Positions 17,804 through 45,229 of a stretch of 47,731 nucleotides of DNA are shown one piece after another (position 1 is the first letter of the stretch; each line of letters begins with the position of its first letter). The notes under the pieces are model-generated. The model was given only the letters and a program-made list of their open reading frames with translations, made no database searches and was not told the DNA's origin. Made by a program: the position numbers and the translations under genes. The stretch covers positions 1 through 47,731 of IMG/VR virus record IMGVR_UViG_3300043540_000243. One strand, 5' to 3'. The DNA is from a virus.

Positions 17804-20800
17804 ATGGCGACGACACCAACGATTACATGGGACGACGAAGAGACACGGCAGTCTCCGCTGCAACATGTCCAGTGGGACGAGACGCCGGCGCAGACGGCCA
17901 ACGACGTGCTCGCGAAACAGGGCCTCTCTGTCTCCGAGCCGTCGGTACCTAATCCCGAGGCTGGGCCAGCGAAACCGCCAGCACGACCGCAAACCTCACG
18001 TCCGGTCGGGAATCTTACGAAACAGCAGGCAGATGCATCCATTGCCGCAACGGATATACGTCCACGATCACAGAACTATGGCGACGGCGGACGGTTCAAT
18101 GTGGGAACCCCTCCGCCACGCTCTATGGTAAGTGGACTTGTCACCGAGCAGGCAGAGCGAGCTAAGGGTGCTGGCGCTTATCGCATTCAGGACAGGGATG
18201 TACTTGCAGCGCCCTTTGGGCGCAATCCGGTACCGGCACCCGTCGAGTCGGCAGTACCGCAGGGACAGTCCAATATCTCTGTAACGGCTCCCAAAGACCA
18301 GCGCCTTACGAAGATGCAGTACGAGAACTCGATTTCGCCGACGGGCGAGGTGTTCACTGCCGGCGAAACGGATGTCCGTCCGCCTGCCGATCGCAAGGCC
18401 GCTCCACTCACACCACAGGAACAGGAAGAGATTGCCAAGGCGATTACGTCTCCGGAGAACATCGCCAACAATGCCATCTATCCGGGCATTGGAAGTATGG
18501 GATCGAGCCTCACGTATGCCACAAAGGGAGACGTCGCGACGGCTGCGGCAAAGTTCCTCGGGGGCGCTGGTGAAGCTCTATCGCCCATGATCGGTCCGGA
18601 CGCTGCCGAGATTGCCCGGGGCGGAGAATTGGCGCGCGCCATCTGGCTCGGTACCACCATGGCAGGAGGCCAAGGTGCCGATATCGCCGTGCGCAAGATC
18701 GGCAAAGACAGAGGTTGGAGTCCTGAACGGATAGAGGCTGCGTCGCAGGCTGCACAGTGGCTCGTCCCTGTCCTGTCGCTGACGCATGGCGTTGCTCGTG
18801 GTGCGGCGGAACTGACGCCCTCTGCGCAGAACGCTCGCGCACATGTGGATCTGGTCAACGCAACGACCGAACACATACTGAACACGATAGGTATCAAGGA
18901 CCCAGACGTGTTGCAGTACAACGCAGCGCGCCGCTACGCAGAAAAGGTCGTCGCCGAGAACTTCGCCGAAGCGGGCACGGCGATGGAGAAGTACAAAGCA
19001 GCGATCAATAAACGGGAAGCTGCGAAACGAGTCCGGGAAGCCACGGCAAATCAGCCACCGATCGAAGAGCCAGCAAAGTCGAAGGCACCGCCGGCGGGAT
19101 CCAGCGGCAAGCCGGGTGAGGCAACACCCGGGCTCGTTCCCACCAAGCCGACCGCCCAGCCGAAGGTGACCGACGTCACGTGGGATGACGAGCAAGTATC
19201 ACCGGCGAAAACCGACAATAGTCAGGGCCCACTTGTGTCCACTAACCCCTCCACTGGGAAAGTGGACAACTACGAGCAGGCAAAGGACCTCGTTTCGAAG
19301 GCTGGCAAAGCGTCTACCTCGATGCTGCAGCGCCACCTGAAGATCGGATACGGCGAAGCGGCGAAGCTCGTCGATCGCATGCAGCAGGATGGCCTGATCG
19401 GGAAAGACCGTGCGTGGACGGGAAAGCCTGTAAATGAGGGGCAAAAGCCAGGCGGCAACGGCCAGCGTCCGGTCGTCCAGGGCAGCAGCAGCCCGGCAGA
19501 AATCCGCCAGTCGGCCGAAGCGCAGAAACCCAAGATCAACGAGATGGCCCAGCAGGCCGTAGCCAGCGTGGAAGGTGGCAAGGTCGAAGGTACTCGGGTA
19601 AAGGATGCCGAGAGTCAGGAGAACAAGGAACAGCGCGGCAAGCCGCCTGAGACGAACATCGATAACCTCGGAGCGCGAGTTTCGGGCGAGACTCCGGAAG
19701 CGATCGAGCAGATCAAGGACAACATCGAGCAGAAGCTGCCCGTCGTTGATCACAAAAAGATCACCTCCAACGGCATCGACGCCGACCAGTACACCGTCCG
19801 GACCGGCAAGCCCGGGGAGGCAAACCAGGTATCCGAAATTCAGGTTCTGAGCAAGCCGCAGGCCGACGCACTGAAGAAGACCGATGAACTCTACCACCAG
19901 CAGAAGGAAGCGCTTGCGGCTGGTGACCAAAAGAAGGCGGACGAACTCGGCAAGCAAATTGAGAAAATCCACCAGGAAGCACAGCAAGAGTTCCAGAAAC
20001 CGGAACCGGTAGCGGTCGGCACAACCGTAGGAACGGCTGCTGGCGCCAAGGCTGATAACAATTTCATCCAGCAGGCCAAACAGGAACTCGGACCAGACGC
20101 CAGCGCTAGTGATGTACTCAGGCGGGCTGAGGACCTGAAGCGCCACAAGAACGGAACCCCGCAGTACGTGTATCGCTCTCGGGATGTCGGCGAGCAGGGC
20201 GTTCCGTCCCAGTCTCACTCCCAGGCTACAGTTTCAAAACAGGAAGCCGAGCGCTACCTCACCTCCCGTGGCAATACCACCGGGAAAGAACAGGAACTGG
20301 TTCGGGTTGATCTCTCGAAACTGCCACCTGATAGCTATGAACGGAAGCCCGGGCCCAATGGGCATGACTGGATCAAGTTCAAGCACGACGTGCCAGAGAG
20401 TGCCGTCGAGAGGGTTCACCAGTTACCTGAGTCACAGCAAGCGAAACCAGAAACCCATAAGTTCGTTGATAAGGCGGTAGAAAAGGCAAACAATTCTGCT
20501 AGTGAAGGACGAGGACCTACAGGAACTGATCAGGGACTTCCTAGCGCTGCCGGACGAGGAGAAGCCGAAAGCGATCGAGGCACTGGGCACCGTCTGGACG
20601 TTTACAGCACGGTGGACGACAAGACAGGCCAGCGTGTTGTCGGCGTCGAGATCCCGAAAGAGCAGATTCAGCGCGTGCTCAATCGCATTACGGGCGGAGC
20701 AAGCACGGTCACTACCGCGCAGGTCATCCCCGATGTGCTGAACAACGGAACACAATACGACCTCGAAGGCGGCATCAAGCTCCGTCGCGGTCGTGTCGCA

Positions 20801-23800
20801 AGACAGAGCGTGGTGCAGTTCGTCGCCAGCAATCCGAATACCCTGAAGGACCTGAAAGACATGGGCGTGCTGCATGAAATCGGGATCCAGCCCATCTATT
20901 ACCTGCCGACGGACAGTAGCAAGGCGCGCACGGTGATGGACAAGGTTCTCGAGCGGTACCCGGTGAAAGCCGAGGGAGGGAGCAATGGCCAGCGGAACAG
21001 CAGCGGCGGCAGCGCCGCTCCAACTTCAACGAATGGAGGGACAGAAGCGAATGCCGGCGAAGGAAATCATGAACCTGTTTCGCAAGAAGAAATTGCACTC
21101 GAGCAGCCCGGACGGTCCGATCGTAACCAACCCGCACCAAGCGAAGGCAATCCAGATGAGCTACGCGCGCGAGGAGGGGGCGGACATCCCACCTCCGCCG
21201 GACAGGGCGAAGAAAATGATGGCGGCGCACCGCAAGCGAATGGCAAAGAGCTAAAGACGGGCGACCGAGTAACCTTCAGTAAGACGCCGCCGGGTAGCTA
21301 CCTCCATGCAGGCGAATACTACACGATTGACCATGCCGACGATTCCTATGTCTATTTTCACAATGACAAGACCGGCGGCGCGACATCTGTGCATCGTGCG
21401 GATCTACGCCTTTCGCAATACACGAAGGTAGACGCCAGCGGGAGGCCGATTAGCGAGGACGAGGGAGGTGCCGTCCTCTCGGCGAACCCTCTATTCGATC
21501 CACGGAACTGGAAGAAGGCAGGCAAGGCGTACGACACTGCCATCGACCGATTCATCGATCGTGGCCTGAAGATTGGCGACAAGTATTATCACGTCGCCGA
21601 ATACGACCCAAAAGTTGCCGACAATCTGCACCTGCTGGACAATGCGCCGCGGTACATGCGCGAGAAAGCACTTGCCAATATCGCGTCTGTCACTGAGGGA
21701 CTGAATAAGGATCAGGTCCGGCTAGCGGCGCTGATGGCCGATTCGGATTCGCGCGATTACCTGCAGGAGAAACATCCCGACGAGTACCATCGGGCACTGC
21801 ACGATCCCAAGGTGATGCAGGCCGTCCGGAAGTTCGAGCCTCTGCAGGACGAGCTGGCCGATGATCGCGTGGCCCTGGGATGGCCGGTACGTCTCAGCCT
21901 GCAAGCGGAAGAGGATCCGACCGTAAATGAGGGGGAAATTGGGCGCTGGACGGTGAAGGACCGCGACGGCAACCTCGTTTCGGAATTCGAGAAAGAACGT
22001 GAGGCGAGGAAGTTCGTCGAAGAGAACGGGATTATCGAGCCTCACCTGAAGCGGACCTATCCAGAACACCTGCGGCAGCCGTTGCCATTCCAGACTGCAG
22101 AGCAGGGACAGGGACCGTGGACGGGCGCGTTCTATCGGGAGCCTGGCGTGCGTCCGCCGAGGATGGACAAAAAGGCCCGTCTGGCATCGGCTGAATACCA
22201 CTACCAAAAAGGTGCACACGACTTCAGCGGATACGTCGAGAGCTATCGCCGCGTGAAAGAGGCGATGCTGAAACAGAACATCTACGACGACTTTACGACG
22301 CGCGCGACGCCGTGGAAGGTCGGCACTGCCCAACCGCCGCAGATTACCTACAACGGCAAGACGTATTACCGCCCGGACATCGCCGTGAAGATGCGCGCTG
22401 GCGGGGAGAAGAACGTTCAGGAGTACTCCGTCTACGATCCGACGCGCGGCGAACGATTCCTTGTCAGCACTCCTGATTTCTCGGTGATCACAACAGGGAA
22501 GCCGGGAATCACAGCAAAAGACCGCTGGTTAGCGCCGAGGCCAGTAGTCGACGGCCTCGAGCAATATGACGCATCGCGTGGAGGAAAGGGCGCAGGCAAG
22601 ATCAAACGATTCTTCCAGGAGCAGATTGTCGGGTTCTACGGGCCGATGGTTCACGTAAATAACATCATTCGCCGCATAGGCCAGGCGATAGGCACAGGTA
22701 CGTTTGACCCGCGTTCATGGGTATCGATCGCGAAAGTTATCGGCAGTGCTGATCTCCGCCATAGGGTGATGCAGGGCGTAAACGACGACACGATTGACAT
22801 GCTTACGCAGCGAGGCGCGTACACGGACTGGGGAGACATCGGCAACCTGAACCACTACATTGGCGGAAATCTGAACCCGTTTAACTGGGTGAGGGCCTTC
22901 GGCAAGGGTGTGCTCTTCGATCCGAGGTTCGCTGGCGGGTGGGGAGGATTGGATCCCAAGGCGCGCGTCATTTTGGCGGATTTCCTCAAAGACCACATTC
23001 CTGGAATTACCGACCAAGAGATTGCCGATGCTGTAAACGACGCATTCGGCAACTACAACCGCGCGAATTGGACAGAGCGGCAAAGGCTGCTGGCAAAATT
23101 CACACTATTCCCGGGATGGGACACGGCATCCGCGAAATGGTTCCTACGGCACCCATTCAAGGTTGCCATTGCTCCTGCACTCGTCGTACTTCTGGCGAAT
23201 CTCGTGATGAATATGCTCGGCAAGAACAAGGATCAGGACAAGTACGACTTCTCCTACCTGCACTACGGAGACCGCCGTTGGCGGTGGGGTGGGGTCACCG
23301 ACTCATTTGGTCTGAAACTAGGCCGTCCGATTCTTGAACCGATGCGTGCATCGCTTGAGGGACGAGACTCGCGCGAGGTTGCCGGATCTGCCGGACAGGG
23401 TCTTGTCGATGCTGGCATTGGGCTTGCCTCCTACTTGCGGCCCGACATCATGGGCATGGCGGAAGTCGCCTCGAATCGCGAAGTGTTGGGACGATCAAGA
23501 GAGGTATGGAATCCGGGCGATGAATACCAACCCGGAAAGGTAATGCCGAACCGCAAGCTCGACAAAATTGTCGCGCATACGGTGATTCGTTCCTTCCCCG
23601 CAGTAAGCCGGTGGCTCGCTGCCGATCAGACGTTTGACGCTGAGACCGGGCTTACCAGCATCGCCGGAATCACGACCTACCCATACGGAGCCGAGCAACG
23701 GCTGCGGGAGAACGAAGCAAAGGCCAGAGGGTACTCGGTAACGATCAGTCACCTCGCAGAGACCGACCCAGAAAGCGCTGATTCCATGGCCGAAGACCCC

Positions 23801-24100: not shown

Positions 24101-24113
24101 CAATGAGGACACC

Positions 24114-24776: not shown

Positions 24777-24777
24777 G

Positions 24778-26346: not shown

Positions 26347-26370
26347 AGTTTGCGCTAATCGAGTCGTACC

Positions 26371-26395: not shown

Positions 26396-26435
26396 TTGCC
26401 ACTTCGCAGTACCAATTTACATGGGGAACGGGCAT

Positions 26436-27268: not shown

Positions 27269-27277
27269 GAGGTGAAT

Positions 27278-29856: not shown

Positions 29857-30237
29857 CTAGCGGTGCTCCTTCAGCCATCGCAGCAAGTCATCTGAGGAGC
29901 GAACGACAAGGTAGTAGTGGCCTGCCTCCTCGACTTGGCGCTGGAATTCTTCCTGCTCAGGACGTTGCGCACCGGTGTCCGACTTCGCTTCGATCCAGAG
30001 CACGACCATATCGCCGTGACACATCCCGCAGTCATAGCGCTGTAGCCGCTGGAAGAGAGCGAGAATGTCCGCATCGCCCTTCCTGCCAAAGAATACCGGC
30101 CTTCCTTTGGCGTTCCGGATGGCACCGGAATTCCAGCGGCGGTGCCAGATGCGCTCGGCTGCCAGCAGGTCTAGGCACGCCCGGAGTACGCCTGACTCGG
30201 GGACGTTAATGCGCGATTCCTTGCATGTGCCCCTCAT
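29857..30237 (-). CDS. VRR-NUC domain nuclease
   Basis: 126 residues from the ATG at 30237, which overlaps the upstream stop as ATGA (a longer in-frame start at 30258 is possible). VRR-NUC pattern: WNSGAIRNAKGRPVFFGRKG, DADILALFQ, then VLWIEAKSDTGAQRPEQEE with the D..E.K catalytic set, and HYYLVVRSSDDLLRWL. Family enzymes cut Holliday junctions or flaps. Stand-alone versions of this size are frequent in phages. Its start codon region carries one of the 14-bp GTAAATGAGGGGCA-like sites. Confidence 0.88.
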   Translation of the reverse strand: MRGTCKESRINVPESGVLRACLDLLAAERIWHRRWNSGAIRNAKGRPVFFGRKGDADILALFQRLQRYDCGMCHGDMVVLWIEAKSDTGAQRPEQEEFQRQVEEAGHYYLVVRSSDDLLRWLKEHR

Positions 30238-30241
30238 TTGC
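30228..30241 (-). repeat. Dispersed 14-bp site, copy 3
   Basis: GCAAATGAGGGGCA, 13 of 14, over the VRR-NUC start codon, same direction as transcription. Confidence 0.6.
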
Positions 30242-30875: not shown

Positions 30876-30889
30876 TGCCCCTCATTTAC
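30876..30889 (-). repeat. Dispersed 14-bp site, copy 4
   Basis: GTAAATGAGGGGCA, exact, between the cytosine methylase and the next gene, same direction as transcription. Confidence 0.7.
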
Positions 30890-31949
30890 CGCTTCATTGT
30901 TCTGGCTTCCGAATACGCTTCGATGAACGCCTTCGCTGTCTCCGCACAAATTGCATCGCCGTAACCCCGCAGTCGCAGAACACGGGCGGCAGCCCATGAG
31001 CCAGCGGGAATAAGCCGGGTCCAATTGGCCTCCACTTCCCGTCTCTCCCATACCACCAGTCGCAGTCGGCCCAGAAGCCGCGAGTTGCGCCTGCATCGGA
31101 AGCTGATCGAGCCGAGTTCGGGTCGAGCCATCCGGGTCCACGCCACTCTCGGACATCCCCGCTGTGTCCTTCCAATCCCGTGCGCTCGGAGTGCTCACTG
31201 TGGCCAACTCCACTATCCGGCGCGAATAATCGTTGTTCCCCGCAGCGTTGTAGGTCTCCGTTGCTGGACTTCCTGCCATCGGAGTCGGAACCGACGCGAG
31301 ATGCACTGCTGTCTCCAGATCGGATGGTGATTTCCTTCCCGGTTCTCTTTGGAACTTCGCCATGTCGTGGCCGTGCTTTGGCTGTCTGGACGTGGGCACC
31401 GAAGTACAGGCGTTGCCGGATGTGTGGCGCACCAACGCTTGCCGCTCCAAGTACCGCCTTCCCAACGGCGTAGTTCTCCGCTTCCAGGTCAGTCTGAACA
31501 AGGTCGAGCCAGCCGAATCCAATCGCGTCATCAGACTGTTCTCCAAAGATGACTGGAGGCTTGCGCTTGCGGATGAGTCGTACCCAATCAGGCCAGAGGT
31601 GACGAGGGTCATCAAACCCTTCGCCTTTGCCTGCACACGAGAAGGACGGGCAGGGGCAGCTTCCGGTCCAGACGGGTTCGTCGTCTGGCCATCCGGCGAG
31701 TCGGAGAGCGTAACTCCACACGGCGATCCCGGCGAAGAAGTGGCACTGGGTGTATCCTCGAACATCGTCTGCTGAAACATCGATAATTGATCGCTCATCG
31801 ACTTCCCCGTCTGCTACGACCCCAGCCTTGATCAGTTCGCGTATCCATTCCGCCTTCTCGGGATCATGTTCGTTGTAGTAGGCACCTTCAGCCAAGTTCC
31901 TATTCGACCCTCTTTTACCACCTACGGTTACTCCCTCGCCAGAGGTCAA
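30886..31949 (-). pseudogene. C5-cytosine DNA methyltransferase with C-terminal frameshift
   Basis: Motif I CHFFAGIAVWSYALRLAG, catalytic TGSCPCPSFSCAGKG (PCQ replaced by PCP), FGEQSDDAIG, and VGAPHIRQRLYFGA are all in one frame. That frame runs on to 30894 with an odd end after PLAHGLPP. In the frame that ends at 30886, the missing family end appears: RVLRLRGYGDAI, then KAFIEAYSEA. One extra base in the GCCGCCCGTG stretch (about 30984-30986) would join both parts, so a one-base deletion is likely. The first start (TTG 31949) is weak; TTG at 31895 is an alternative. Activity may be lost or changed, since the displaced end carries the last conserved motif. Confidence 0.75.
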
Positions 31950-32290: not shown

Positions 32291-32356
32291 TGGTGGACGT
32301 GACTGGGATCGAACCAGCGACCTCATCGTTGCGAACGATGCGCTCTCCCATAGCTA
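32291..32356 (-). other. attP core: 3' part of a tRNA-Ala(CGC) gene
   Basis: The minus strand carries the 3' part of a tRNA: D-stem remnant, a perfect anticodon stem CATCG/CGATG with loop TTCGCAA (anticodon CGC at 32331-32333), a 5-base variable loop, T-arm with loop TTCGATC, acceptor 3' strand CACGTCC, A73 and CCA (32291-32293). Base 70 is U, as in tRNA-Ala (G3:U70). The 5' acceptor strand is not complementary and the D-loop is only 5 bases, so this is not a full tRNA. It lies 3 bases after the integrase stop. This is the classic attP fragment that restores the host tRNA on integration. Confidence 0.85.
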
Positions 32357-32358
32357 AC

Positions 32359-33579
32359 CTACTGAATCGTAACCACTTCGTTGCCGTTTCCCTCGCTCAA
32401 AACGGCGGTTTTTTGTGACAAGTTTGTGACAAACTGTGACAACTTCCGCAATGCACGCCGCTGCGCCTCGGGAACCGCTTGGGCGTAAATGTCCATCGTG
32501 GTCCCAACGCGCGAGTGACGCGCCAGTGCCTGCACCGTCTTTGGATCCGCCCCTGCCTCAACCAGCCAGGTGAGGAACGAACGCCGCAAGCAATGCCAGT
32601 TCACCTTCCCGAGTCCGACCGCTCGCGCGGCTGGCTTGATGTGGCGGCCGAGAATGTTGTGATCGTCCATCTCGGCGCCGGCGTACACCGACTGGAATAT
32701 GAGATCGTCCGGCCCGTCGGCGCGCACGGCCTTGACCTTGCGCGTCGCACGACCAGCTCGGTATGTAACTGTCATGTCCTTCAGTCGGTTGATACGCTGG
32801 ATCACCTCGGGCGGGACGCCGATCGTCGCTGCGCTGTGTACGCTCTTCGTGTGCGACCAGTCGCCGCGGCAGTACCGCTCCTCGATCGCGATCGAATCCT
32901 CGCCGATGCAGCGCCACTTCAGGCCGATCAATTCGCTCACGCGCAGCCCCGTCCACACGGCGACAAAGACCATTGTCGCGTACGGTTCACGGATCCCGGC
33001 GAGAATCTGCACGAACTCCTCGGGAGTGATGACGAACTTCTTTCGCTTCCCGCGCTTGTCCGGAGGCAGAGTGACATTCTCAAGGGGATTGCCTTCGACC
33101 AGTCCGAAGCGCCTGGCCGAACGCAGCACGCTCGAGAGCGCGTCGCGTACCTTCACTCGTGTCGGATGCTCGATGCTTTTCGCGGCCATCCCACTAAAGA
33201 ACACCTGCAATTCCATCGTGGTGATTTCCCGGAAGCACATCGAACCGAACACCGGCTTGAGATGGTTATCGATCGCACGCTCGTAGCTGTCTCGCGTGGT
33301 TGACGCCAGCAGTGGTGACTCGGTGATGTTGTAGTGTTTGTCCACGTAATCGCTGAACTGCATCCCGCCGCCGACGTTCTGCAAACCCTGATTGATGGAC
33401 TGCAGGTAGTCGGCTGCGAGCTTTCTTACTTCGCGTATCTTCTTCGAGCCGCTACACAGCTTTTCGCGATGCTGCCTGCGAACGCGCTGGCCGTTCTCGA
33501 AAAAGTCCTTCCGTACCCGTATGTACCACCAGTTCCCGATTCGCTCGGGTTCTGGGTCCTGATACCGACGTCTGGCCAT
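32359..33579 (-). CDS. int: Tyrosine integrase
   Basis: 406 residues from ATG 33579 (AAAGGAG 11 bases upstream); an upstream TTG at 33657 would add 26 residues. N-terminal arm-binding region with WYIRVRKDFFENGQRVRRQH, a core-binding helical domain (STTRDSYERAIDNHLKPVFG), and the catalytic domain: Arg in TGLRVSELIGLKW, His-x-x-Arg in WHCLRRSFLTWL, His in ARHSRVGTTMDIYAQ with the nucleophile Tyr in DIYAQ. Its stop is 3 bases from the attP tRNA fragment, and its last codons contain three TGTGACAA repeats. Catalyses recombination between attP and the host tRNA-Ala. Confidence 0.93.
   Translation of the reverse strand: MARRRYQDPEPERIGNWWYIRVRKDFFENGQRVRRQHREKLCSGSKKIREVRKLAADYLQSINQGLQNVGGGMQFSDYVDKHYNITESPLLASTTRDSYERAIDNHLKPVFGSMCFREITTMELQVFFSGMAAKSIEHPTRVKVRDALSSVLRSARRFGLVEGNPLENVTLPPDKRGKRKKFVITPEEFVQILAGIREPYATMVFVAVWTGLRVSELIGLKWRCIGEDSIAIEERYCRGDWSHTKSVHSAATIGVPPEVIQRINRLKDMTVTYRAGRATRKVKAVRADGPDDLIFQSVYAGAEMDDHNILGRHIKPAARAVGLGKVNWHCLRRSFLTWLVEAGADPKTVQALARHSRVGTTMDIYAQAVPEAQRRALRKLSQFVTNLSQKTAVLSEGNGNEVVTIQ
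32414..32443. repeat. Right arm repeats: three TGTGACAA copies inside int 3' end
   Basis: TGTGACAAG at 32414-32422, TGTGACAAA at 32425-32433 and TGTGACAAC at 32435-32443. Starts are 11 and 10 bases apart, one helical turn. They lie inside the integrase coding sequence, encoding a repeated SQ/VTN-type segment, about 60 bases from the tRNA core. Confidence 0.65.
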
Positions 33580-33665
33580 CTGCTCGAGTTCTCCTTTCGA
33601 GAGCAGAGAGCCTTTCTTCGCCGGCGGTAGAGTATCGGATTGTGTACGGGTAGACAACGGGTTTG

Positions 33666-35677: not shown

Positions 35678-35679
35678 CT

Positions 35680-36665: not shown

Positions 36666-36709
36666 AAGTACCAAGTACAACAGGCACCATCTGATTGTTC
36701 TCAACAAGA

Positions 36710-36871: not shown

Positions 36872-36873
36872 GG

Positions 36874-37155
36874 CTACGCTCTCCGCAGCATTGCTTCACA
36901 TTCGGTGGCGCTGCGCACGGACTTGCGCTTAGACATCTCTCTTCGGATGCCACGCACATCGATGTTCAGGTCGTCGATGTATCGCGACATCGTATTGCGG
37001 TGGACTCCGATGGCACGTGCGGCGCGGCATTGATTCCCACGGTGCTGAGTCAGCACGCTCACCACAAACTCGCGGCGAACAGCTTCTACTGCTTCGTCGA
37101 GCGTGACCTCGGCGCTGACCATTGCTGATACCAATTGCTGTAGTAGGACTCTCAT
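36874..37155 (-). CDS. Fis-type helix-turn-helix DNA-binding protein
   Basis: 93 residues from ATG 37155 (GAGAGGGA upstream). A longer in-frame ORF to 37374 is Arg/Ser shadow. HTH core: VRREFVVSVLTQHRGNQCRA, then ARAIGVHRNTMSRYIDDLNI, matching the HTH_8/Fis family (F..VL..H.GN..RAA..LG..R.TL...). Basic C-terminal tail. Likely a small transcription regulator or architectural protein of the leftward operon, able also to help integrase. Confidence 0.8.
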   Translation of the reverse strand: MRVLLQQLVSAMVSAEVTLDEAVEAVRREFVVSVLTQHRGNQCRAARAIGVHRNTMSRYIDDLNIDVRGIRREMSKRKSVRSATECEAMLRRA

Positions 37156-37249
37156 TCCCTCTCCGCTCCTATGACTGAATAGACAGCGTTCGACCTGCCG
37201 GTACGTTGAAGTCGAACGCTGCCTGTTTCGTTGCCATGGCCTGGACCTC

Positions 37250-37993: not shown

Positions 37994-38033
37994 TTTCTTA
38001 TCTCGCTTCTGTGAATTGGTACTGCGGTGAAAC

Positions 38034-38450: not shown

Positions 38451-38469
38451 TGCTACCACCTCCTGTAAG

Positions 38470-39195
38470 TCAGTTCCGTAATCCACCTTCACTACGCATG
38501 AGTGCTAGAGCCTCGTCGTAGCTCATCAGCCGCAATACAAAGCGATTGTTCCGTGCGTCGGGGCCGGACTCACCGCCGACGACAACCCAGTTGATCAGCA
38601 GAGTGTTTAAGTTACGTACTAGAACATCCTCAAGTAAGGGTTCAGCGGACCACCAACGAGTGATCGCTGGCGTTTGCCTCAGAATGTCCAAGTACGCATC
38701 TGCGCACTTTTTCGTCCCCGCACTGACGCCTTCCCAGATGTGTGCGTATTTTGCTGCGGCGATGCCCTTGCCTTCCTCGGTCTGTGTTAAGAAGTGCAAT
38801 CTCCGCTCTGGCCTTTTGGTGAGAATCTGAAAGGTATGACCCTTGTGCAGCGCGCCGGCGAGTGCCATCACTGCATAGACTTCGCTGATCCATTCATCGG
38901 GCACAAACTCGCCGTACAGGTCCGTCATTGAGCACACGAAGAACGTGGACGGCTTGCGAATGTGCAGCGGTTCCTCAAGTACGCGCTGGTCGAGATAGAG
39001 CTCGACTTTGTCTGCCTGATCGACGGCGTAGCGGATTCCGTTGCCGAAGCGCCCGGAGTTCATCCGTTCGGCATAGCAGTTCTTGCATTCGGAAGCTACC
39101 TTGGTGCAGAACCAGCCGCGTTTGCTGGTCTCACGGTTTCGCGCCCGTATTGGGTTCCACGTGCGCTCCGTCCACTCGATTGATGTCTTACTCAT
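38470..39195 (-). CDS. DUF5131 (Gp37/Gp68-like) protein
   Basis: 241 residues. MSKTSIEWTERTWNPIRARN, then TKVASECKNCYAERM, the Cys set of phage DUF5131 proteins, and later FFVCSMTDLYGEFVPDEWI, LTKRPERRLHFL, WWSAEPLLEDV and WVVVGGESGPDARN. All expected blocks are present. The fold is thought to be radical-SAM/TIM-barrel-like with an iron-sulfur site, but the reaction is unknown. It begins 3 bases after a 38-codon ORF. Confidence 0.85.
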   Translation of the reverse strand: MSKTSIEWTERTWNPIRARNRETSKRGWFCTKVASECKNCYAERMNSGRFGNGIRYAVDQADKVELYLDQRVLEEPLHIRKPSTFFVCSMTDLYGEFVPDEWISEVYAVMALAGALHKGHTFQILTKRPERRLHFLTQTEEGKGIAAAKYAHIWEGVSAGTKKCADAYLDILRQTPAITRWWSAEPLLEDVLVRNLNTLLINWVVVGGESGPDARNNRFVLRLMSYDEALALMRSEGGLRN

Positions 39196-39198
39196 TCT

Positions 39199-39315
39199 TC
39201 AGAACAGTCCTTTCACCTGATTGAGCCGGTCCGTGTTGTGCTGCAGCCAGTCTTTGGCTTCGTCGTAAATCTCGGCATAGCCATCGGAGAGCGGCTTGTA
39301 TAGGTCGCTCCTCAG
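39199..39315 (-). CDS. 38-codon ORF with candidate CTG start
   Basis: Between two small genes, the frame reads RSDLYKPLSDGYAEIYDEAK, then DWLQHNTDRLNQVKGLF. It has protein-like character, is free of stops and ends 3 bases before DUF5131. The only start-like codon before the upstream stop is CTG 39315, which overlaps TGA of the preceding gene as CTGA. Same geometry as at 35868. Alternatively it is the 3' part of that gene after a frameshift. Confidence 0.4.
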   Translation of the reverse strand: MRSDLYKPLSDGYAEIYDEAKDWLQHNTDRLNQVKGLF

Positions 39316-39422
39316 CTTCTAGCGACAAGAGTGAAGGTCCTCTGTCCGCGCTGCTTTGCCTTCGCAAAACAGCGGTTGTCTTTTTCGTTCTCGCTGATCT
39401 GAATCACGTCTCCTCCATCCAT
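39312..39422 (-). CDS. 36-residue small protein
   Basis: ATG 39422 gives MDGGDVIQISENEKDNRCFA, then KAKQRGQRTFTLVARS. The end (F.KA..RG..TFTLVA) is a pattern common in longer phage proteins, which continue past this point. So it may be a natural short form or the front of a frameshifted gene whose continuation is the 38-codon ORF. Weak AAAGAAC ribosome site. Confidence 0.45.
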   Translation of the reverse strand: MDGGDVIQISENEKDNRCFAKAKQRGQRTFTLVARS

Positions 39423-39457
39423 ATGTTCTTTGTGGTCACAGCCATACACTGATACTG

Positions 39458-39673
39458 CTAGTGAATGGTTTCCGCTTCCATGGAATCGGCGACGGGAAAC
39501 ATGCCGACGTGGTGCGCAATCTGCTCGCCCATGTCCATATTGAAGCCCGCACGGCAAGCGACACAGTTCGTTACCGGCAACGGCGGATCGTCTAAAAAGA
39601 AGCGAAGAGTCTGCTTGTGATTGCAACGGCGGTTTGTGCATTGGTACGTTACTTCTCTCAATTCTTCTGGCAT
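39458..39673 (-). CDS. 71-residue zinc-ribbon protein
   Basis: ATG 39673 with AGGAGG upstream (spacing about 11). Text: MPEELREVTYQCTNRRCNHK, then TLRFFLDDPPLPVTNCVACR. Cys pairs CTNRRC and CVAC form a ribbon. The longer ORF to 39811 starts in junk. No family recognised. About 144 bases upstream to KTSC hold no convincing gene, only a short frame ending in CMVSREIRERGAVDGLP. Confidence 0.6.
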   Translation of the reverse strand: MPEELREVTYQCTNRRCNHKQTLRFFLDDPPLPVTNCVACRAGFNMDMGEQIAHHVGMFPVADSMEAETIH

Positions 39674-39817
39674 TGATAGACATTCCTCCTGAGATATAGG
39701 TGTGGCGCCGCGTATTTCAAGGAAGGCCATCCACCGCGCCCCGTTCGCGGATCTCCCGCGACACCATGCACGGCGCCACTTGCCAGCAGAGCGGATCGTC
39801 GCCGCTGGCAAACTTGG

Positions 39818-40030
39818 TTACAGCGCCTTACCGGGAATCTTGCGAATGTGATCCGCGAAGAACTTCCCTTTTGATTCCGACTTCATAAAGTTTCGGTGGA
39901 CTTCCGGCGAGACCCCTTCGTACTGGTAGGTCTTGCCACTGGAAAAAGTCACCTGCAAGTGGCCGGTTTTGTCGTCGTAACCGATCGACTTGATGCTGCT
40001 GGAACTAACTGCGGTGTGTTGCATAGGCAT
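39818..40030 (-). CDS. KTSC domain protein
   Basis: 70 residues; matches the KTSC pattern: VSSSSIKSIGYDDKTGHLQV, then FSSGKTYQYEGVSPEVHRNF, then MKSESKGKFFADHIRKI. KTSC domains occur alone in phages and fused to lysyl-tRNA synthetases; nucleic-acid binding has been suggested. AAAAGGAGAACACC precedes the ATG. Upstream, in the 64-base gap, lies a GTAAATGAGG site. Confidence 0.88.
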   Translation of the reverse strand: MPMQHTAVSSSSIKSIGYDDKTGHLQVTFSSGKTYQYEGVSPEVHRNFMKSESKGKFFADHIRKIPGKAL

Positions 40031-40057
40031 GGTGTTCTCCTTTTCAGTACTGCTATT

Positions 40058-40071
40058 TGCACCTCATTTAC
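40058..40071 (-). repeat. Dispersed 14-bp site, copy 5
   Basis: GTAAATGAGGTGCA, 13 of 14, in the gap upstream of the KTSC gene, same direction as transcription. Confidence 0.65.
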
Positions 40072-40094
40072 CAACTACCACAGAACCTGAAATC

Positions 40095-40910
40095 TTAGCG
40101 TTTCCGTCCAGTTGTGCGCGGTTCAAGCTTCGAGTAGGCCCGGACGCCCGGGATATTGGTCGCGCCCTTGAGCGCCTTGACGACCTTGCCGATCGCCGAT
40201 TCGTTGATCAACAGGTACTCGCGCGGTACGGCGTTTGCATCGGCGATCTCGAAATACCAGTTCTCCACCATGGAGCCCTGCCCTTCCACTTTGGCGCTGA
40301 CAGTCTCCGGTACCACGACCGGTACGGTTGGCACAATGACCGGAGCCACAGGAGCGACCACGACAGGAGTCGCAAGAATGGCCCTGGCGACTTCAGGCTT
40401 GCCTGCAGCTTCAGCAGCGATGGCCTCATTTATCCGAGTCTCTTCCGCCTTGCGCTGCGCTTCCTCGTGGGCTTTGCGTGCTGCTTCTTCCGCAGCCTTG
40501 CGTGCTTCCTCCTCGGCCTGGCGCTGCGCTTCTCGTTGCTGCCGATCGAGCTCTTCCTGTATCCGACGGCACTCGGTTTCATACGCCGACAGCTTAGAGC
40601 GGATAATTGTGTCGGGTTCGTCGAGATTGTCGAGGTGCCTCTTCTCCTGTGAGCAGATAGCCTTCCATGTGTCATAGGCCTTTTTCTTCGACTCGACGAA
40701 GTCGGAAATGATGTCCTTGCGGAGTTCGGCGATGCCATTCAGCAGATCCCACGCGATCTGCTTGGTCTCGGCGTCGCGGACCACGAGCGCTACAGCGCGG
40801 TCAAGCAGGCCATTGCGCTTGGTTTCAATCTTTTCGATCGCCTGCTCCATTGCCTGCTCGGCAATAAGCGGCGCGAGGGTGTGAGAAGTTTCTACGGCTG
40901 GTGTGGCCAT
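40095..40910 (-). CDS. Coiled-coil early protein
   Basis: 271 residues. Residues 1-120 are helical (MEQAIEKIETKRNGLLDRAV). Residues 120-165 are a strong Glu/Gln/Lys/Arg/Ala coiled coil (EELDRQQREAQRQAEEEARK). It has a Val/Pro hinge, then a compact C-terminal domain (WYFEIADANAVPREYLLINE). This layout is common for phage proteins beside recombination nucleases. Likely an accessory or scaffolding partner for recombination; not a recognised enzyme. AAGGAAA before the ATG. Confidence 0.65.
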   Translation of the reverse strand: MATPAVETSHTLAPLIAEQAMEQAIEKIETKRNGLLDRAVALVVRDAETKQIAWDLLNGIAELRKDIISDFVESKKKAYDTWKAICSQEKRHLDNLDEPDTIIRSKLSAYETECRRIQEELDRQQREAQRQAEEEARKAAEEAARKAHEEAQRKAEETRINEAIAAEAAGKPEVARAILATPVVVAPVAPVIVPTVPVVVPETVSAKVEGQGSMVENWYFEIADANAVPREYLLINESAIGKVVKALKGATNIPGVRAYSKLEPRTTGRKR

Positions 40911-40928
40911 GATGAATGTTTCCTTTCC

Positions 40929-41576
40929 TTAGAGGTTCAATTTGTAACCACGATTCAACTGCAACCAAACGACGGCGAGCGACCATGCGAACGCTTGGTA
41001 ATCGCCCTCGTCCTCATACTTGTGCATCTGGTATGTGCTGTTCTTGCGTAATTGCACGGCATAACGATCACGGTGTAACTGGTTCGGACATTGCGGCATC
41101 GTGGAGTCGTATCCCGCGAGCTGCAACCCCCACCAGGCGTACTTGCTTTCGCCGGTTTTGATTTCGAGGACAGACTCCCGCCCGTTCACAATGGCGCGGC
41201 GGTCGTACTTGCGTCCGACCGGCATTCCGTTGATGGTGCCAATCGCCTGTTGTTCCACGTCGAGAATCTGCACGTCGCACTCACGCTTAAATTGCAGCCA
41301 CTGTAGCACGTAGGGCAAATACTCGGCATTGATGGGAGAGAGGTCAATTTCTTCCTCAGGCACGCCAGCCATCTCGGTATCGATAAATTCGGTGATGGCA
41401 TGGACAGCGGTACCGCGAGCACTGGCACGTTCGAGGATATCGGACTGGATGTCGTCATAGTTAGCCCATCCGGTCTGCTTGAGCACCTGCGTCGTTGACG
41501 GGATGACAACGCCGTCTGACCGTATATACAGATGTCGAGCTTCATCGAAAGTGAAAGCAACCGCAGCGGTGGCCAT
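40929..41576 (-). CDS. PD-(D/E)XK nuclease (RecB-like)
   Basis: 215 residues from ATG 41576 (GGGGGGAAA upstream). N-terminal FTFDEARHLYIRSDGVVIPS and TQVLKQTG, then the active site: GRKYDRRAIVNGRESVLEIK (Asp then ExK), followed by WGLQLAGYDSTM, the Q-x-x-x-Y motif of RecB/Cas4-type nucleases. Probably a 5'-3' or end-processing exonuclease for phage recombination, paired with the next gene, whose stop codon is 2 bases upstream of this gene's ATG (no overlap). Confidence 0.85.
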   Translation of the reverse strand: MATAAVAFTFDEARHLYIRSDGVVIPSTTQVLKQTGWANYDDIQSDILERASARGTAVHAITEFIDTEMAGVPEEEIDLSPINAEYLPYVLQWLQFKRECDVQILDVEQQAIGTINGMPVGRKYDRRAIVNGRESVLEIKTGESKYAWWGLQLAGYDSTMPQCPNQLHRDRYAVQLRKNSTYQMHKYEDEGDYQAFAWSLAVVWLQLNRGYKLNL

Positions 41577-41578
41577 GG

Positions 41579-42559
41579 CTATTTCCCCCCTCGCGCAGCC
41601 CATGCACAGGCTTCCTCATATCCCGACTTGGGCATCAGGCGATCATCCTCAATACCAAAGCGCTGTATGAGGTAGTTCTTCATCTCTGTCTTGGTGACGC
41701 CATTGCCCATGCATAGCCCAAAGAAGCGGCGCGCTTGAGGAACGGTAATGGTCTCGTAATTTGGTTGAGACGACGGGGTTTGCTGATCGCCTATCGGCGA
41801 ATGCGCTACCTGTGGCAGCGGTGCGGACTGAGCCGGTTGTGTAGCTGGCTGGGGCGGCGCACTACTGCCCTTTCGTTGTGGCATAGCGACCGGCGCGGCA
41901 GGCTTTGCTGGTTGGCTTGCGCTGCCGGCGCCGCTTGCCGCTTCGCCATCGGCGACTTCGTGCTGCAACTCCTCGGGGAGATCCTCGATGTCCTGGGTGA
42001 AGATGTCGGACGCCGCAGTGACAGTCAACGTGACATCAATCTGTGAGCGCTTCTTCGCCATCTTGAGCACCGTATTGGCGACGTCGGCCCACTCGGTACG
42101 AACCTGCTGAATCTGGTAAACGCGGTCGCGTTGGTCTTTGCCCCATTTGATACGCCGCCGATGTTCTGGAGTGGCATCAAATTCTTCCTGGCAGACTGCG
42201 CGGCGCCACTTGTATTTCTCTTCGTTGGAACTGGCCTCGCCGATTCCTGATCCGAGATAAGCGCCCGTCGGGATGCTGGTCGCACGAGTGGTCACGCGGA
42301 AGCGTGCAACGTCGTCGGTACTCAGGTCCTCGACGATCGGCTCGATCGCGATGTGGAAGGTGCTGAGTAATATTTCCGAGCCAGGCTTCCAGAGACTCGG
42401 CTTTTTCGTCCCGGGGATGACACCATAATGCTCGCCTTCCTTCATTACGGCGCGCATGACTTCCTGTATCAGATTGACCTGCGCTCTGATCTCGGCGGCC
42501 GATTGCGGCTTACTGGGAACCTCGTGTTTGACTTCGACGATTGCTGCATTCGATCCCAT
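41579..42559 (-). CDS. Recombination-module protein, candidate single-strand annealing partner
   Basis: 326 residues. The N-terminal 190 residues resemble a widespread phage family next to nucleases: VMRAVMKEGEHYGVIPGTKK, PSLWKPGSEILLSTF, then TEWADVANTVLKMAKKRSQI, and AASDIFTQDIEDLPEEL. A Pro/Gln/Ala linker (about 205-270) leads to a C-terminal helical domain (RFFGLCMGNGVTKTEMKNYL). The order nuclease + this protein matches exonuclease + annealing protein pairs, so annealing or DNA binding is inferred. I do not recognise it as RecT, Erf or Rad52. Confidence 0.65.
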   Translation of the reverse strand: MGSNAAIVEVKHEVPSKPQSAAEIRAQVNLIQEVMRAVMKEGEHYGVIPGTKKPSLWKPGSEILLSTFHIAIEPIVEDLSTDDVARFRVTTRATSIPTGAYLGSGIGEASSNEEKYKWRRAVCQEEFDATPEHRRRIKWGKDQRDRVYQIQQVRTEWADVANTVLKMAKKRSQIDVTLTVTAASDIFTQDIEDLPEELQHEVADGEAASGAGSASQPAKPAAPVAMPQRKGSSAPPQPATQPAQSAPLPQVAHSPIGDQQTPSSQPNYETITVPQARRFFGLCMGNGVTKTEMKNYLIQRFGIEDDRLMPKSGYEEACAWAARGGK

Positions 42560-42570
42560 GCAGTCCTCCT

Positions 42571-42834
42571 TTATTTAACCGGCTCCTTCTTAGGGACCGG
42601 CTTACTACTAAGCTCTCGCGAGACCCATTGCATGGCGTGCTCAATCCCGCATAGATGGACAGCGTCAACGTTAATGACGTCACGCACGATGTCAGCGGCT
42701 TCGTCCCACATCGTGGAACCCCATGGCAGCAGTAGCACTCCGCCGTTGACGACATGTCCATGGAACCAGTGATTGGCATCGCTGGCGTGATGCTTGTCGC
42801 ACAACTCGCACTTGTAGGTCTCCGGTACCCTCAT
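42571..42834 (-). CDS. Small Cys/His protein
   Basis: 87 residues from ATG 42834, overlapping the upstream stop as ATGA. MRVPETYKCELCDKHHASDA has CELC plus two His, a zinc knuckle; later text HLCGIEHAMQWVSRELS is helical. No family recognised. Longer ORF to 42909 is a shadow. Confidence 0.6.
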   Translation of the reverse strand: MRVPETYKCELCDKHHASDANHWFHGHVVNGGVLLLPWGSTMWDEAADIVRDVINVDAVHLCGIEHAMQWVSRELSSKPVPKKEPVK

Positions 42835-43097
42835 CGCGTTACCCACTCCGCAAACAGACGAATACCGTAGGCGATACCGACAAAGATCAAGTAAATCGCC
42901 GTGCTGCACAGACCTAGGGCGAGCGACTTACACAGCGCTTCTGCGTGCGACCGGAACAGTCCTGGCTTGGTGGATTGCGCCCTGTGCTCCTCGTGCCAGC
43001 GCTCATTGTTGTTCTGCCACTTATCGGCAATCCGTAGCGATTTCAGGAAGTGGATATCCTGCTCGGTGATTTCCTGTTTTTCCCAAAGAACCGACAT
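42831..43097 (-). CDS. Single-span membrane protein
   Basis: 88 residues with a soluble, charged N-terminus (EKQEITEQDIHFLKSLRIAD) and one C-terminal membrane helix (SLALGLCSTAIYLIFVGIAY, about residues 57-77). A tail-anchored early membrane protein may serve superinfection exclusion or membrane attachment of replication; that is a guess. Confidence 0.6.
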   Translation of the reverse strand: MSVLWEKQEITEQDIHFLKSLRIADKWQNNNERWHEEHRAQSTKPGLFRSHAEALCKSLALGLCSTAIYLIFVGIAYGIRLFAEWVTR

Positions 43098-43101
43098 GGT
43101 C

Positions 43102-43332
43102 TTATCCTCTGGCTACAGCGGCGTAAACCTTTCGCTTGGACTGTAGTTCCGCAAAGCAACGCTGGCAGACGGTGGGATCTTTCGGATCAGGCCTGTGCCG
43201 CTTGAAGATTGGGCGTAATTTCTCGTTAATCCCCAGCAGGAGATGTTGATTGCGGCGTCCGCCAACCTTTTGGCAAGGCAACTTGATGCGACGATTGTCG
43301 CGGCCCGTCAGCAAACTCATACAAAAACTCAT
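43102..43332 (-). CDS. Small basic protein with CxxC
   Basis: 76 residues from ATG 43332 (GGAGG upstream, ATGA overlap). Very basic text LLTGRDNRRIKLPCQKVGGR, then RHRPDPKDPTVCQRCFAELQ. A CQRC site and many Arg/Lys suggest nucleic-acid binding. No family recognised. ATG at 43320 is an alternative. Confidence 0.55.
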   Translation of the reverse strand: MSFCMSLLTGRDNRRIKLPCQKVGGRRNQHLLLGINEKLRPIFKRHRPDPKDPTVCQRCFAELQSKRKVYAAVARG

Positions 43333-43541
43333 TGAGCCTCCAAGATGGCATTGGCGATTTCCTGATATGTCGCATTGACCGCGATGGCGATGGCATGTTT
43401 AATGCGAGGATCTGCTGTAGCGAGTGCCGGATCGTCCTCGTATTGCTTCATCTTGCGCTGGCCAACCTCAATTGCAATCTCAGCCGCACGCTGGCGGGTT
43501 CCTTCCGCGACTGCCGTCGCTTTCTCTAGGGGAGTCAACAT
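43329..43541 (-). CDS. Helical 70-residue protein
   Basis: ATG 43541 with GAGGTGATC just upstream. MLTPLEKATAVAEGTRQRAA, then DDPALATADPRIKHAIAIAV, then EIANAILEAQ. Wholly helical. A longer ORF to 43718 passes through the tRNA on the same strand and is not used. No family recognised. Confidence 0.55.
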   Translation of the reverse strand: MLTPLEKATAVAEGTRQRAAEIAIEVGQRKMKQYEDDPALATADPRIKHAIAIAVNATYQEIANAILEAQ

Positions 43542-43617
43542 GATCACCTCACGGCACGGCTGCGCTTCACGGACGCAGCTCGATAACTTCCCGCATAGTT
43601 GTTTGGTTGGTGAAAAT

Positions 43618-43695
43618 TGGTAGCGGGGCCGGGAGTTCAACCCGGTAAAGTCTGGGTTATGAGGCCAGCGAGCGCAGCGTAGCTCAATCCCCGCA
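43618..43695 (-). tRNA. tRNA-Met-like gene, anticodon CAU, initiator-like
   Basis: 78 bases with encoded CCA. Acceptor TGCGGGG pairs by 6 bp with CCCCGCT; bases 1 and 72 (U and U) do not pair, as in initiator tRNAs. T-arm is perfect (CCGGG/CCCGG). Anticodon loop CTCATAA (CAU at 43659-43661) with stem CTGGC/CCCAG, four of five pairs (C31-C39 mismatch). D-arm is reduced. CAU may mean initiator Met, elongator Met or Ile2. Lies between two leftward small genes. Confidence 0.75.
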
Positions 43696-43714
43696 TTGAA
43701 ATTGGTTGCGATAT

Positions 43715-43900
43715 TCATGCCACTTCAATCTCCCGCTGAACATCGGATAGCTTCTTGTTGAGCGCACCCACAACACGAAAGCCGTTCTTCCAGATGGCAT
43801 TCGCTTCAACTCCGACAAGGATGCAATCTTTCAGAATCGCGTCGGAGATCATTGGGTATTTGCGGCGCAATTCATCGAGTTGGCGCTTCCAGTAATTCAT
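43715..43900 (-). CDS. 61-residue helical protein
   Basis: MNYWKRQLDELRRKYPMISD, then AIWKNGFRVVGALNKKLSDV. ATGA overlap with the upstream gene. Charged helix at the N-terminus. No family recognised. Its stop lies about 20 bases before the tRNA. Confidence 0.55.
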   Translation of the reverse strand: MNYWKRQLDELRRKYPMISDAILKDCILVGVEANAIWKNGFRVVGALNKKLSDVQREIEVA

Positions 43901-44304
43901 GCACGGCCTGCAGCGCGATCACACGCCTCTTGTTCGGCGCGGTCTTCTTCGGCTTGCTCGGTGAATTCGTCTCCGGTGTAGCCGGGTTCCATGTCTTCCA
44001 ATTCCCACGTCTCCACCTCTACAGTCTTCTTCGTTTTTTTCCCGACATTGCCAAAGTAGGTTGCGAGAGTGATTTTCAATATCCCTAGCTGCGACTCAAA
44101 ACGACAGAAGTAATCATCTGTGACCGCGTTGCCACCCAAGATTTTCATGGCAGCCTGAAATGAACTGCCATCGTGATAGTGAAGAGCGAGGCCATTGAAG
44201 CCACCTGTTTCAACACAGAATGGAGGATGAGATTCCAATTTCTCCGCGAGACGATGTAGCGCAGCGGCCAATTCGTGGGAGGTATTGAGTTCACTATGGT
44301 TCAT
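43897..44304 (-). CDS. Unknown 135-residue protein
   Basis: MNHSELNTSHELAAALHRLA, then EKLESHPPFCVETGGFNGLA and KILGGNAVTDDYFCRFESQL. The C-terminal 40 residues are acidic (GDEFTEQAEEDRAEQEACDR). Mixed alpha/beta core. It follows the RHH gene by 33 bases in the leftward operon. No family recognised. Confidence 0.6.
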   Translation of the reverse strand: MNHSELNTSHELAAALHRLAEKLESHPPFCVETGGFNGLALHYHDGSSFQAAMKILGGNAVTDDYFCRFESQLGILKITLATYFGNVGKKTKKTVEVETWELEDMEPGYTGDEFTEQAEEDRAEQEACDRAAGRA

Positions 44305-44337
44305 GTCATGCCGCTCCTTAGACGGCAGAAATTGCGG

Positions 44338-44559
44338 TTACCTTACAGGCTCCTCTGTCTTGGCAAGACCTAAATCCTTGCGCGCCTGTTCCAGTACGAC
44401 GGCGCGGATGTAAGCGGTGCGAGTGCGATGCACACTTTTCCGCGCTGCCCGTTCGACGAGGCGTATGTCGGCCCGCGTCTTGAAGTAGACGTCGATGCCG
44501 TTGCGTGGCAAGCTCCCTGGATGCCCGCCGCGTTTCCTGTGAGTTTCCCTGTCTGTCAT
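44338..44559 (-). CDS. Ribbon-helix-helix (CopG/Arc-like) regulator
   Basis: 73 residues. After a basic arm (MTDRETHRKRGGHPGSLPRN) comes an RHH pattern: strand GIDVYFKTR, helix ADIRLVERAARKS, helix RTRTAYIRAVVLEQARKDLG. First gene of the leftward operon and directly behind promoter 44597-44626 and the GTAAAT operator. RHH dimers bind short repeats spaced in tandem, just as seen at 44571-44592, so autoregulation is the natural hypothesis. Confidence 0.7.
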   Translation of the reverse strand: MTDRETHRKRGGHPGSLPRNGIDVYFKTRADIRLVERAARKSVHRTRTAYIRAVVLEQARKDLGLAKTEEPVR

Positions 44560-44570
44560 AAGTATTGGTC

Positions 44571-44592
44571 ATTTACCTGTAAATAGATTTAC
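44571..44592. promoter_or_regulatory. Operator: three alternating GTAAAT half-sites
   Basis: ATTTAC CT GTAAAT AG ATTTAC. Half-sites at 44571-44576, 44579-44584 and 44587-44592 alternate in direction with 8-base pitch, making two overlapping palindromes. They lie just downstream of the -10 box of the leftward promoter, over the likely transcription start. Confidence 0.8.
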
Positions 44593-44596
44593 GTGC

Positions 44597-44626
44597 ATGT
44601 TACCCGCAATGACAAAGTGGTGTCAA
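44597..44626 (-). promoter_or_regulatory. Leftward early promoter
   Basis: On the minus strand, perfect -35 TTGACA (44621-44626), spacer 18, -10 TAACAT (44597-44602). The RHH gene starts about 40 bases downstream. Drives the whole leftward operon. Confidence 0.75.
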
Positions 44627-44751
44627 GCCAATTCTTCGGGGGAGAAGTAGATATCGACCCGTTTGTCATGCCGTCGGCCCTCGACTTGGCGCTTACGGCG
44701 CAGCCCGGGGATCGGCGATGTTCCCTTGCCCTTCTTTTTTAGTGGTGCCAT
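44623..44751 (-). CDS. 42-residue basic protein
   Basis: MAPLKKKGKGTSPIPGLRRK, then RQVEGRRHDKRVDIYFSPEE, ending LA. Highly basic; the last part (RVDIYFSPEEL) looks like the strand and first turn of an RHH protein. No clear ribosome site. Its stop codon overlaps the -35 box of the leftward promoter. May be a cut-down RHH relative. Confidence 0.45.
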   Translation of the reverse strand: MAPLKKKGKGTSPIPGLRRKRQVEGRRHDKRVDIYFSPEELA

Positions 44752-44845
44752 ACGGGTATTTTGGGGGTATTACCAAAGTTATGCAACAGAATTTTGGTAC
44801 ATGTGCGGGATTATATGAGTGGTCATTTCCCACTATGAAAACAAG

Positions 44846-44868
44846 AGGCCCATTTCTGGGCCTTTCTT
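44846..44868 (-). terminator. Terminator after the 51-residue leftward gene
   Basis: AGGCCCA (44846-44852) with TGGGCCT (44857-44863), loop of 4. On the minus strand the stem is followed by CTTGTTTTC, on the plus strand by TTCTT, so it could act both ways. It lies 15 bases past the stop of the 51-residue gene. Confidence 0.65.
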
Positions 44869-44877
44869 GCTCGAAAG

Positions 44878-45033
44878 TTACGGACTCCGGCGCTTTGGGC
44901 TGCACTGAACAAGCAAGTGATTACGGGCGTAATGAAGAATTTCACCTACCTGGGCGTCGGTCAGAGGTTTAGCCGGGCCTAGCTCGCTTTCTAGGAACTT
45001 GCGAAAAAGTGATAGCGTGTCTGCGTCATCCAT
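44878..45033 (-). CDS. 51-residue monocistronic control-region protein
   Basis: ATG 45033 with AGGGG about 9 bases upstream. MDDADTLSLFRKFLESELGP, then LTDAQVGEILHYARNHLLVQ. It has its own promoter (-10 TATAAT at 45083-45088) and own terminator, between the two early operons. No HTH is evident, but a repressor gene would sit here in a lambdoid plan. Candidate regulator, by position only. Confidence 0.55.
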   Translation of the reverse strand: MDDADTLSLFRKFLESELGPAKPLTDAQVGEILHYARNHLLVQCSPKRRSP

Positions 45034-45082
45034 TTTTGTCCCCTTTGTTCCGATTGCAAAACCGCCCCAACATTTACCACGG

Positions 45083-45113
45083 ATTATAGGTATCACCGGT
45101 GGGTGTTCGTGAA
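45083..45113 (-). promoter_or_regulatory. Promoter of the 51-residue gene
   Basis: On the minus strand, perfect -10 TATAAT (45083-45088) and a TTCACG -35 (45108-45113), spacer 19. A GTAAAT half-site begins 5 bases after the -10 box, the same layout as at the leftward early promoter (4 bases). Confidence 0.6.
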
Positions 45114-45215
45114 GTGACTCTGGTTGTAGAACCTGTTTGGGAGGGGTAACTAAGTTTGGACAATTAGGGTGGCGTTCTCCGCGAGATATCCACTTTTACA
45201 CAAAGTTTTCCTATT

Positions 45216-45229
45216 TATACCTCATTTAC
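45216..45229 (-). repeat. Dispersed 14-bp site, copy 6
   Basis: GTAAATGAGGTATA, 11 of 14 (first ten bases exact), in the control region. Confidence 0.55.

What the first reader, a model, noticed from the sequence alone, without database searches (positions are those of the whole stretch)
19430..45229. A stoperator-like family of 14-bp sites running with transcription
GTAAATGAGGGGCA or close variants occur at 19430 (+), 21923 (+), 30228 (-), 30876 (-), 40058 (-) and 45216 (-). Two copies are identical over 14 bases, three match at 13 positions, one at 11. The core GTAAATGAGG occurs five times exactly in 47.7 kb, where about 0.1 is expected for a 10-mer on both strands at equal base use. Five copies lie in transcribed regions (inside genes or in short gaps between them), all on the coding strand; the sixth, the weakest match, lies in the control region, where local transcription direction is not settled. 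The core GTAAAT(GA) also forms the operator at the leftward promoter. Mycobacteriophage L5 uses asymmetric, transcription-aligned repressor sites (stoperators) to silence a prophage; this could be an unrelated version with a new repressor. Function is inference.
Basis: partly seen in the sequence, partly recalled or inferred. Interest (0 to 1): 0.85.

Follow-up and report, generated by a model that had tools for sequence, protein, structure and literature searches.

The report
Candidate operator sites in temperate phage
An unclassified temperate phage carries a short DNA word more often than chance allows, clustered at its control region and in gaps of its early genes, so it is probably a binding site for the phage's own switch protein, but the evidence that it stops running transcription (a 'stoperator') is weak.

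Summary
The six sites exist as described, and GTAAATGAGG is the most over-represented 10-mer of the window (5 copies, 0.04 expected). The stoperator reading is only partly supported. (1) Running with transcription is not informative: other 10-mers of the same composition lie 149:48 on the coding strand, so 5 of 5 has P about 0.25. (2) In true stoperator phages handled the same way, Trixie and Peaches, about 20 sites are found, 18/21 and 20/20 in one orientation against a near 50:50 background. (3) Three copies (19430, 21923, 30228) lie in translated sequence or at a start codon and lack the leading G of the others; they are probably incidental. What survives is a shorter element, GGTAAATGA. 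It has four copies (up to one mismatch) in the 0.76-kb control region (0.24 expected), three of them at promoter-like sequence. Three more lie in gaps of the leftward early operon: 7 of 9 leftward-arm copies are non-coding, where 10% of the sequence is (P 4e-6). Best reading: operators of a phage-encoded regulator, with a few promoter-less copies that might act as roadblocks. The only structural relative found lacks the motif; no regulator is identified. Ordinary in kind.

The parts
45216..45229 (-). site GTAAATGAGGTATA in the control region; full element GGTAAATGAGGTATAAATAGG
   Evidence: shares 18 of 20 bases (CTATTTNNACCTCATTTACC) with the 40058 site, one of about 8 such near-repeats in the window
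45064..45077 (-). related site GTAAATGTTGGGGC, 5 bases downstream of a TATAAT (45088-45083) ahead of the 51-residue gene
44821..44831 (-). related site GGGAAATGACC in the spacer of a promoter-like TTCATA-18-TATAAT (44839-44810)
44579..44592 (.). dyad GTAAATCTATTTAC, 4 bases downstream of TAACAT of a promoter-like TTGACA-18-TAACAT (44626-44597)
44567..44577 (-). GGTAAATGACC directly after the dyad and ahead of the 73-residue gene
40058..40071 (-). site GTAAATGAGGTGCA in the 64-base gap between the exonuclease-like gene (40095-40910) and the KTSC gene (39818-40030)
31905..31918 (-). weaker site GTAAAAGAGGGTCG (element GGTAAAAGAGGGTCGAATAGG) just upstream of the probable start of the dcm-type methylase; that start is my judgement
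30876..30889 (-). site GTAAATGAGGGGCA in the 35-base gap between the methylase stop (30894) and an ATG with a strong SD (30858)
30228..30241 (-). GCAAATGAGGGGCA; overlaps an ATGA stop/start junction; probably a translation signal, not a site
19430..19443 (+). GTAAATGAGGGGCA inside the 2098-aa late gene, codons of VNEG; probably incidental
21923..21936 (+). GTAAATGAGGGGGA inside the same late gene, codons of VNEG; probably incidental
44338..44559 (-). 73-residue protein, ribbon-helix-helix-like by eye; candidate binder
   Evidence: no family hit, low-confidence model
44878..45033 (-). 51-residue two-helix protein; alternative candidate
   Evidence: mean pLDDT 81, helices 3-18 and 26-43, single sequence

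Best explanation
The functional element is GGTAAATGA, often followed by GG, with GTAAAT as its half-site. It is the binding site of a phage-encoded DNA-binding regulator. Copies at and near the promoter-like sequences of the control region (44.5-45.3 kb) would act as operators that shut leftward, and perhaps rightward, early transcription in the prophage and make the regulator control its own gene; the candidate is the 73-residue protein, whose upstream region carries GTAAATCTATTTACAGGTAAATGACC. Three further copies lie in gaps of the leftward early operon (40058, 31905, 30876) and would be secondary operators of internal promoters or roadblocks to elongation. The copies at 19430, 21923 and 30228 are probably incidental. 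Shown: the sites, their enrichment, the clustering and the preference for non-coding gaps. Inferred: protein binding, repression and the identity of the binder.
For: The 10-mer is the most over-represented of the window beyond a Markov null. GTAAAT: 5 in the 0.76-kb control region, 0.29 expected from the rest (P 1.4e-5) and 0.57 in shuffles of the region itself (P 0.001); GGTAAATGA with up to one mismatch: 4 there against 0.24 expected (P 1.2e-4). Of 9 leftward-arm copies, 7 are non-coding although 10% of the sequence is (P 4e-6); outside the control region 3 of 5 (P 0.004, with gene starts partly chosen by me). GTAAAT begins 4-5 bases after the -10-like hexamer of two promoter-like sequences and GGGAAATGACC sits in the spacer of a third. 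Sites 40058 and 45216 share 18 of 20 bases.
Against: No binder identified; the ribbon-helix-helix assignment has no profile or structural support. No relative with the same regulator was found, so there is no conservation test. Dispersed families of this strength occur in 6 of 21 other phage records. Two of the best six matches lie in a late gene with identical codons, which is unlikely under synonymous shuffling (P 0.002, chosen after the fact), so calling them incidental may be wrong. The division into real and incidental copies was made after seeing the data.
Confidence: 0.5

Rival explanations
1. A true stoperator system: one repressor binds all six asymmetric sites, early and late, and halts RNA polymerase in an orientation-dependent way.
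For: Sites are asymmetric, 14 bp, dispersed over both arms, on the coding strand 5 of 5, partly in short gaps, and one lies in the control region; no consensus promoter near 40058, 31905 or 30876; two late-gene copies with identical codons.
Against: Composition alone gives 76% coding-strand placement; six sites against 20-21 in Trixie and Peaches, where orientation is 18/21 and 20/20 against a near 50:50 background and the top 10-mer reaches log10 P -16.7 and -18.1; no repressor homologue; 30228 is a start codon.
Confidence: 0.15
2. Phage-specific promoter or activator sites: the element is part of promoters used at one stage of infection.
For: Sites precede genes at 40058, 31905 and 30876; the 45216, 40058 and 31905 elements share an extension GGTAAAWGAGGKNNNAATAG; other phage records here carry dispersed families with long conserved flanks that look like promoters (G014).
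Against: Flanks are not conserved over all six sites; no RNA polymerase or sigma factor was seen among the proteins scanned, though not every gene was scanned; two sites are deep in one gene.
Confidence: 0.15
3. A compound of unrelated causes: codon coincidence (VNEG twice), an ATGA start, SD-like GAGG and one or two real control-region sites, grouped by eye.
For: Three of six sites have a translational explanation; families this strong occur in 6 of 21 other phage records.
Against: The six stand 10 bits above everything else, beyond all 60 simulations; the non-coding preference of GGTAAATGA is not explained.
Confidence: 0.2

Closest known systems
Cluster A mycobacteriophage operators and stoperators (L5, Trixie, Peaches)
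   Same: Asymmetric 13-14 bp sites, dispersed, in one orientation to transcription, some at promoters and some in short gaps (PMC6550527, PMC9283540).
   Different: About a quarter as many sites; orientation no stronger than composition; two sites in mid-gene; no repressor homologue.
Arc/Mnt-type ribbon-helix-helix operators of P22-like phages (own knowledge)
   Same: A small ribbon-helix-helix-like gene sits just downstream of short AT-rich half-sites in dyad and direct-repeat arrangement.
   Different: The fold is not confirmed, and Arc operators are not known to me as dispersed in operon gaps.
Dispersed phage promoter families
   Same: Repeated, oriented, in gaps.
   Different: Shorter conserved block without a common start-site region.

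Membership tests
Cluster A stoperators | 20-30 copies of a 13-14 bp asymmetric site | tested here: not met
   6 copies here; 21 in Trixie and 20 in Peaches at up to 2 mismatches
Cluster A stoperators | orientation follows transcription beyond composition | tested here: inconclusive
   5 of 5 (6 of 6 with the control-region site if transcription there runs leftward), but the background is 149:48; in Trixie 18/21 against 87:73, in Peaches 20/20 against 393:442
Cluster A stoperators | mostly in short intergenic gaps | tested here: inconclusive
   3 of 6 in gaps or the control region, 2 mid-gene, 1 start codon; the shorter element GGTAAATGA does prefer gaps in the leftward arm
Cluster A stoperators | a homologue of the monomeric two-domain repressor | tested here: not met
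   tblastn of the Trixie and Peaches repressors against the window: best E 0.036 over 31 residues
Cluster A stoperators | repressor-dependent block of elongation | not testable with these tools
   needs a reporter assay
Autoregulated operator of a small phage repressor | sites overlap or adjoin the regulator's promoter | tested here: met
   dyad and direct half-site between TTGACA-18-TAACAT and the 73-residue gene; the promoter is a consensus match only
Ribbon-helix-helix (Arc/CopG) repressor | profile or fold match | tested here: inconclusive
   no meaningful Pfam, NCBIfam or PDB-sequence hit; AF2 mean pLDDT 63 without an alignment

The most novel reading that the evidence does not exclude
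A stoperator-type prophage silencing system outside the actinobacteriophages, using an unrelated small repressor that reads GGTAAATGA sites across early and late genes.
Probability: 0.12. Interest if true: 0.75.

Novelty: new member of a known kind. Interest (0 to 1): 0.3.

Why it matters
If the sites are operators they give direct entry to the lysis-lysogeny switch of a phage with no close relative in the collections searched. If the operon-internal copies block elongation, stoperator control would have arisen twice. The calibration also shows how to judge such claims: compare strand bias with composition, and site number with true stoperator phages.

Tried and rejected
Exact 14-mer in IMG/VR: 76 contigs, one match each; followed in 14 of the records, none has more than 3 copies of the 10-mer core, so no sign of a shared family. 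Portal, scaffold, capsid, phrog_1029 and 73-residue proteins as queries for relatives: one structural relative (G001) and a few distant hits; one scan was wasted on a wrong reading frame (44318-44572) before the 73-residue frame was used. attP core searched in GTDB genomes to find the host: none, so prophage relatives could not be sought. Sigma-54 reading (GG-N10-GC): fits only 2 of the gap and control-region sites, rejected. Minimal ORF reading (ATG AGG TRY AAA TAG at 45216 and 40058): noted, not testable. L5, Bxb1 and Bxz2 records not found under the accessions tried; Trixie and Peaches used instead.

Full report
The window is a single IMG/VR virus record of 47,731 bases. It encodes a temperate phage: a rightward late arm (1-28.2 kb), a leftward early operon (45.1-28.3 kb) with an integrase at 32359-33657, and a control region at about 44.5-45.3 kb. 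A near-match search with 19-43 kb found nothing in 50,697 phage records apart from 150 bases of a methylase.

Observation. The six sites are real and placed as stated. GTAAATGAGG is the most over-represented 10-mer of the window, and the six 14-mers score above 20 bits, with the next best match at 10.8. For scale, the same measure gives log10 P -9.1 here, -16.7 and -18.1 in two true stoperator phages, and a value at least as extreme as ours in 6 of 21 other phage records.

Strand. The claim that the sites run with transcription carries little weight. The coding strand of this phage is purine-rich, and all 10-mers with the composition of the core lie 149 to 48 on it; five of five is then P about 0.25. 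In Trixie and Peaches the background is close to 50:50 and the sites are 18 of 21 and 20 of 20 in one orientation.

Context of each site. 19430 and 21923 are the codons GTA AAT GAG GGG (VNEG) of one 2098-residue late protein; in the relative G001 the stretch just before the aligned part is not VNEG. 30228 overlaps an ATGA stop/start junction with a good SD. 30876 lies in the 35 bases between the methylase stop and an ATG with AGGAGG. 40058 lies in a 64-base gap. 45216 lies in the control region. The last three share a leading G (GGTAAATGAGG) which the first three lack.

The refined element. GGTAAATGA with up to one mismatch occurs 19 times. In the leftward arm 7 of 9 copies are non-coding, where 10% of the sequence is (P 4e-6; outside the control region 3 of 5, P 0.004). 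Four are in the control region against 0.24 expected. Three of them are at promoter-like sequence: 5 bases after TATAAT (45083), in the spacer of TTCATA-18-TATAAT (44839-44810), and, together with the dyad GTAAATCTATTTAC, just after TTGACA-18-TAACAT (44626-44597) ahead of the 73-residue gene. The fourth is 45216. The promoter scan as a whole found no more matches than shuffles (6 against 7.5), so these promoters are candidates only. Gene starts were partly chosen by me, and the refinement was made after seeing the data.

Relatives. One structural relative was found, a 66-kb record (G001) with portal 50% and capsid protein 64% identical. It has no copy of the core with up to one mismatch, shares the late genes but, apart from a 63-residue methylase match, none of the early module at E 1e-4, and shows no match to the 73-residue protein. 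This fits sites that go with a particular regulator but does not prove it.

Mechanism. The best-supported reading is a set of operators for a phage regulator, with autoregulation at the 73-residue gene, plus a few operon-internal copies whose role (internal promoter control or roadblock) is open. Binding, repression and the binder are inferred. The stoperator reading is not excluded, but the features that could be tested are either not met or not settled. Stoperator features are taken from PMC6550527 and PMC9283540.

Noticed in passing
32302-32356 (-): The 3' part of a tRNA (Rfam RF00005, 31.7 bits) lies just downstream of the integrase gene, by eye tRNA-Ala with anticodon CGC: the probable attP core. 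Its 50-base core has no exact match in the GTDB genomes held.
   Followed up: partly
44623-44751 (-): A 42-residue ORF ends in KRVDIYFSPEELA, which looks like the first strand of a ribbon-helix-helix protein cut short, directly upstream of the 73-residue gene; its stop overlaps the TTGACA of that gene's putative promoter. No Pfam hit.
   Followed up: partly
44821-44831 (-) and 44567-44577 (-): GGGAAATGACC and GGTAAATGACC form a second small pair that shares AAATGACCA with each other and AAATGA with the family.
   Followed up: partly
L116 and L117 (G014, IMGVR_UViG_2974746064_000001): Ten copies of TTTTAACAAAAAGTGCTAT (one copy TTTTAGCA), log10 P -16.8 for its 10-mer: a strong dispersed family, probably phage promoters.
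   Followed up: partly
L096 and L097 (G002, IMGVR_UViG_3300035502_000222): Eight copies of GTAAATAGTT, seven of them on one strand with conserved flanks (roughly ATATCTTATCAC ... TTTGTAAATAGTTTTT), probably promoters.
   Followed up: no
36874-37155 (-): Small protein with a Fis-type helix-turn-helix (PF02954, E 8e-5), another candidate regulator.
   Followed up: no
19081-19171 (-): ARAGORN calls a tRNA-Pro (GGG) antisense inside the 2098-residue late gene; probably spurious, Rfam does not report it.
   Followed up: partly
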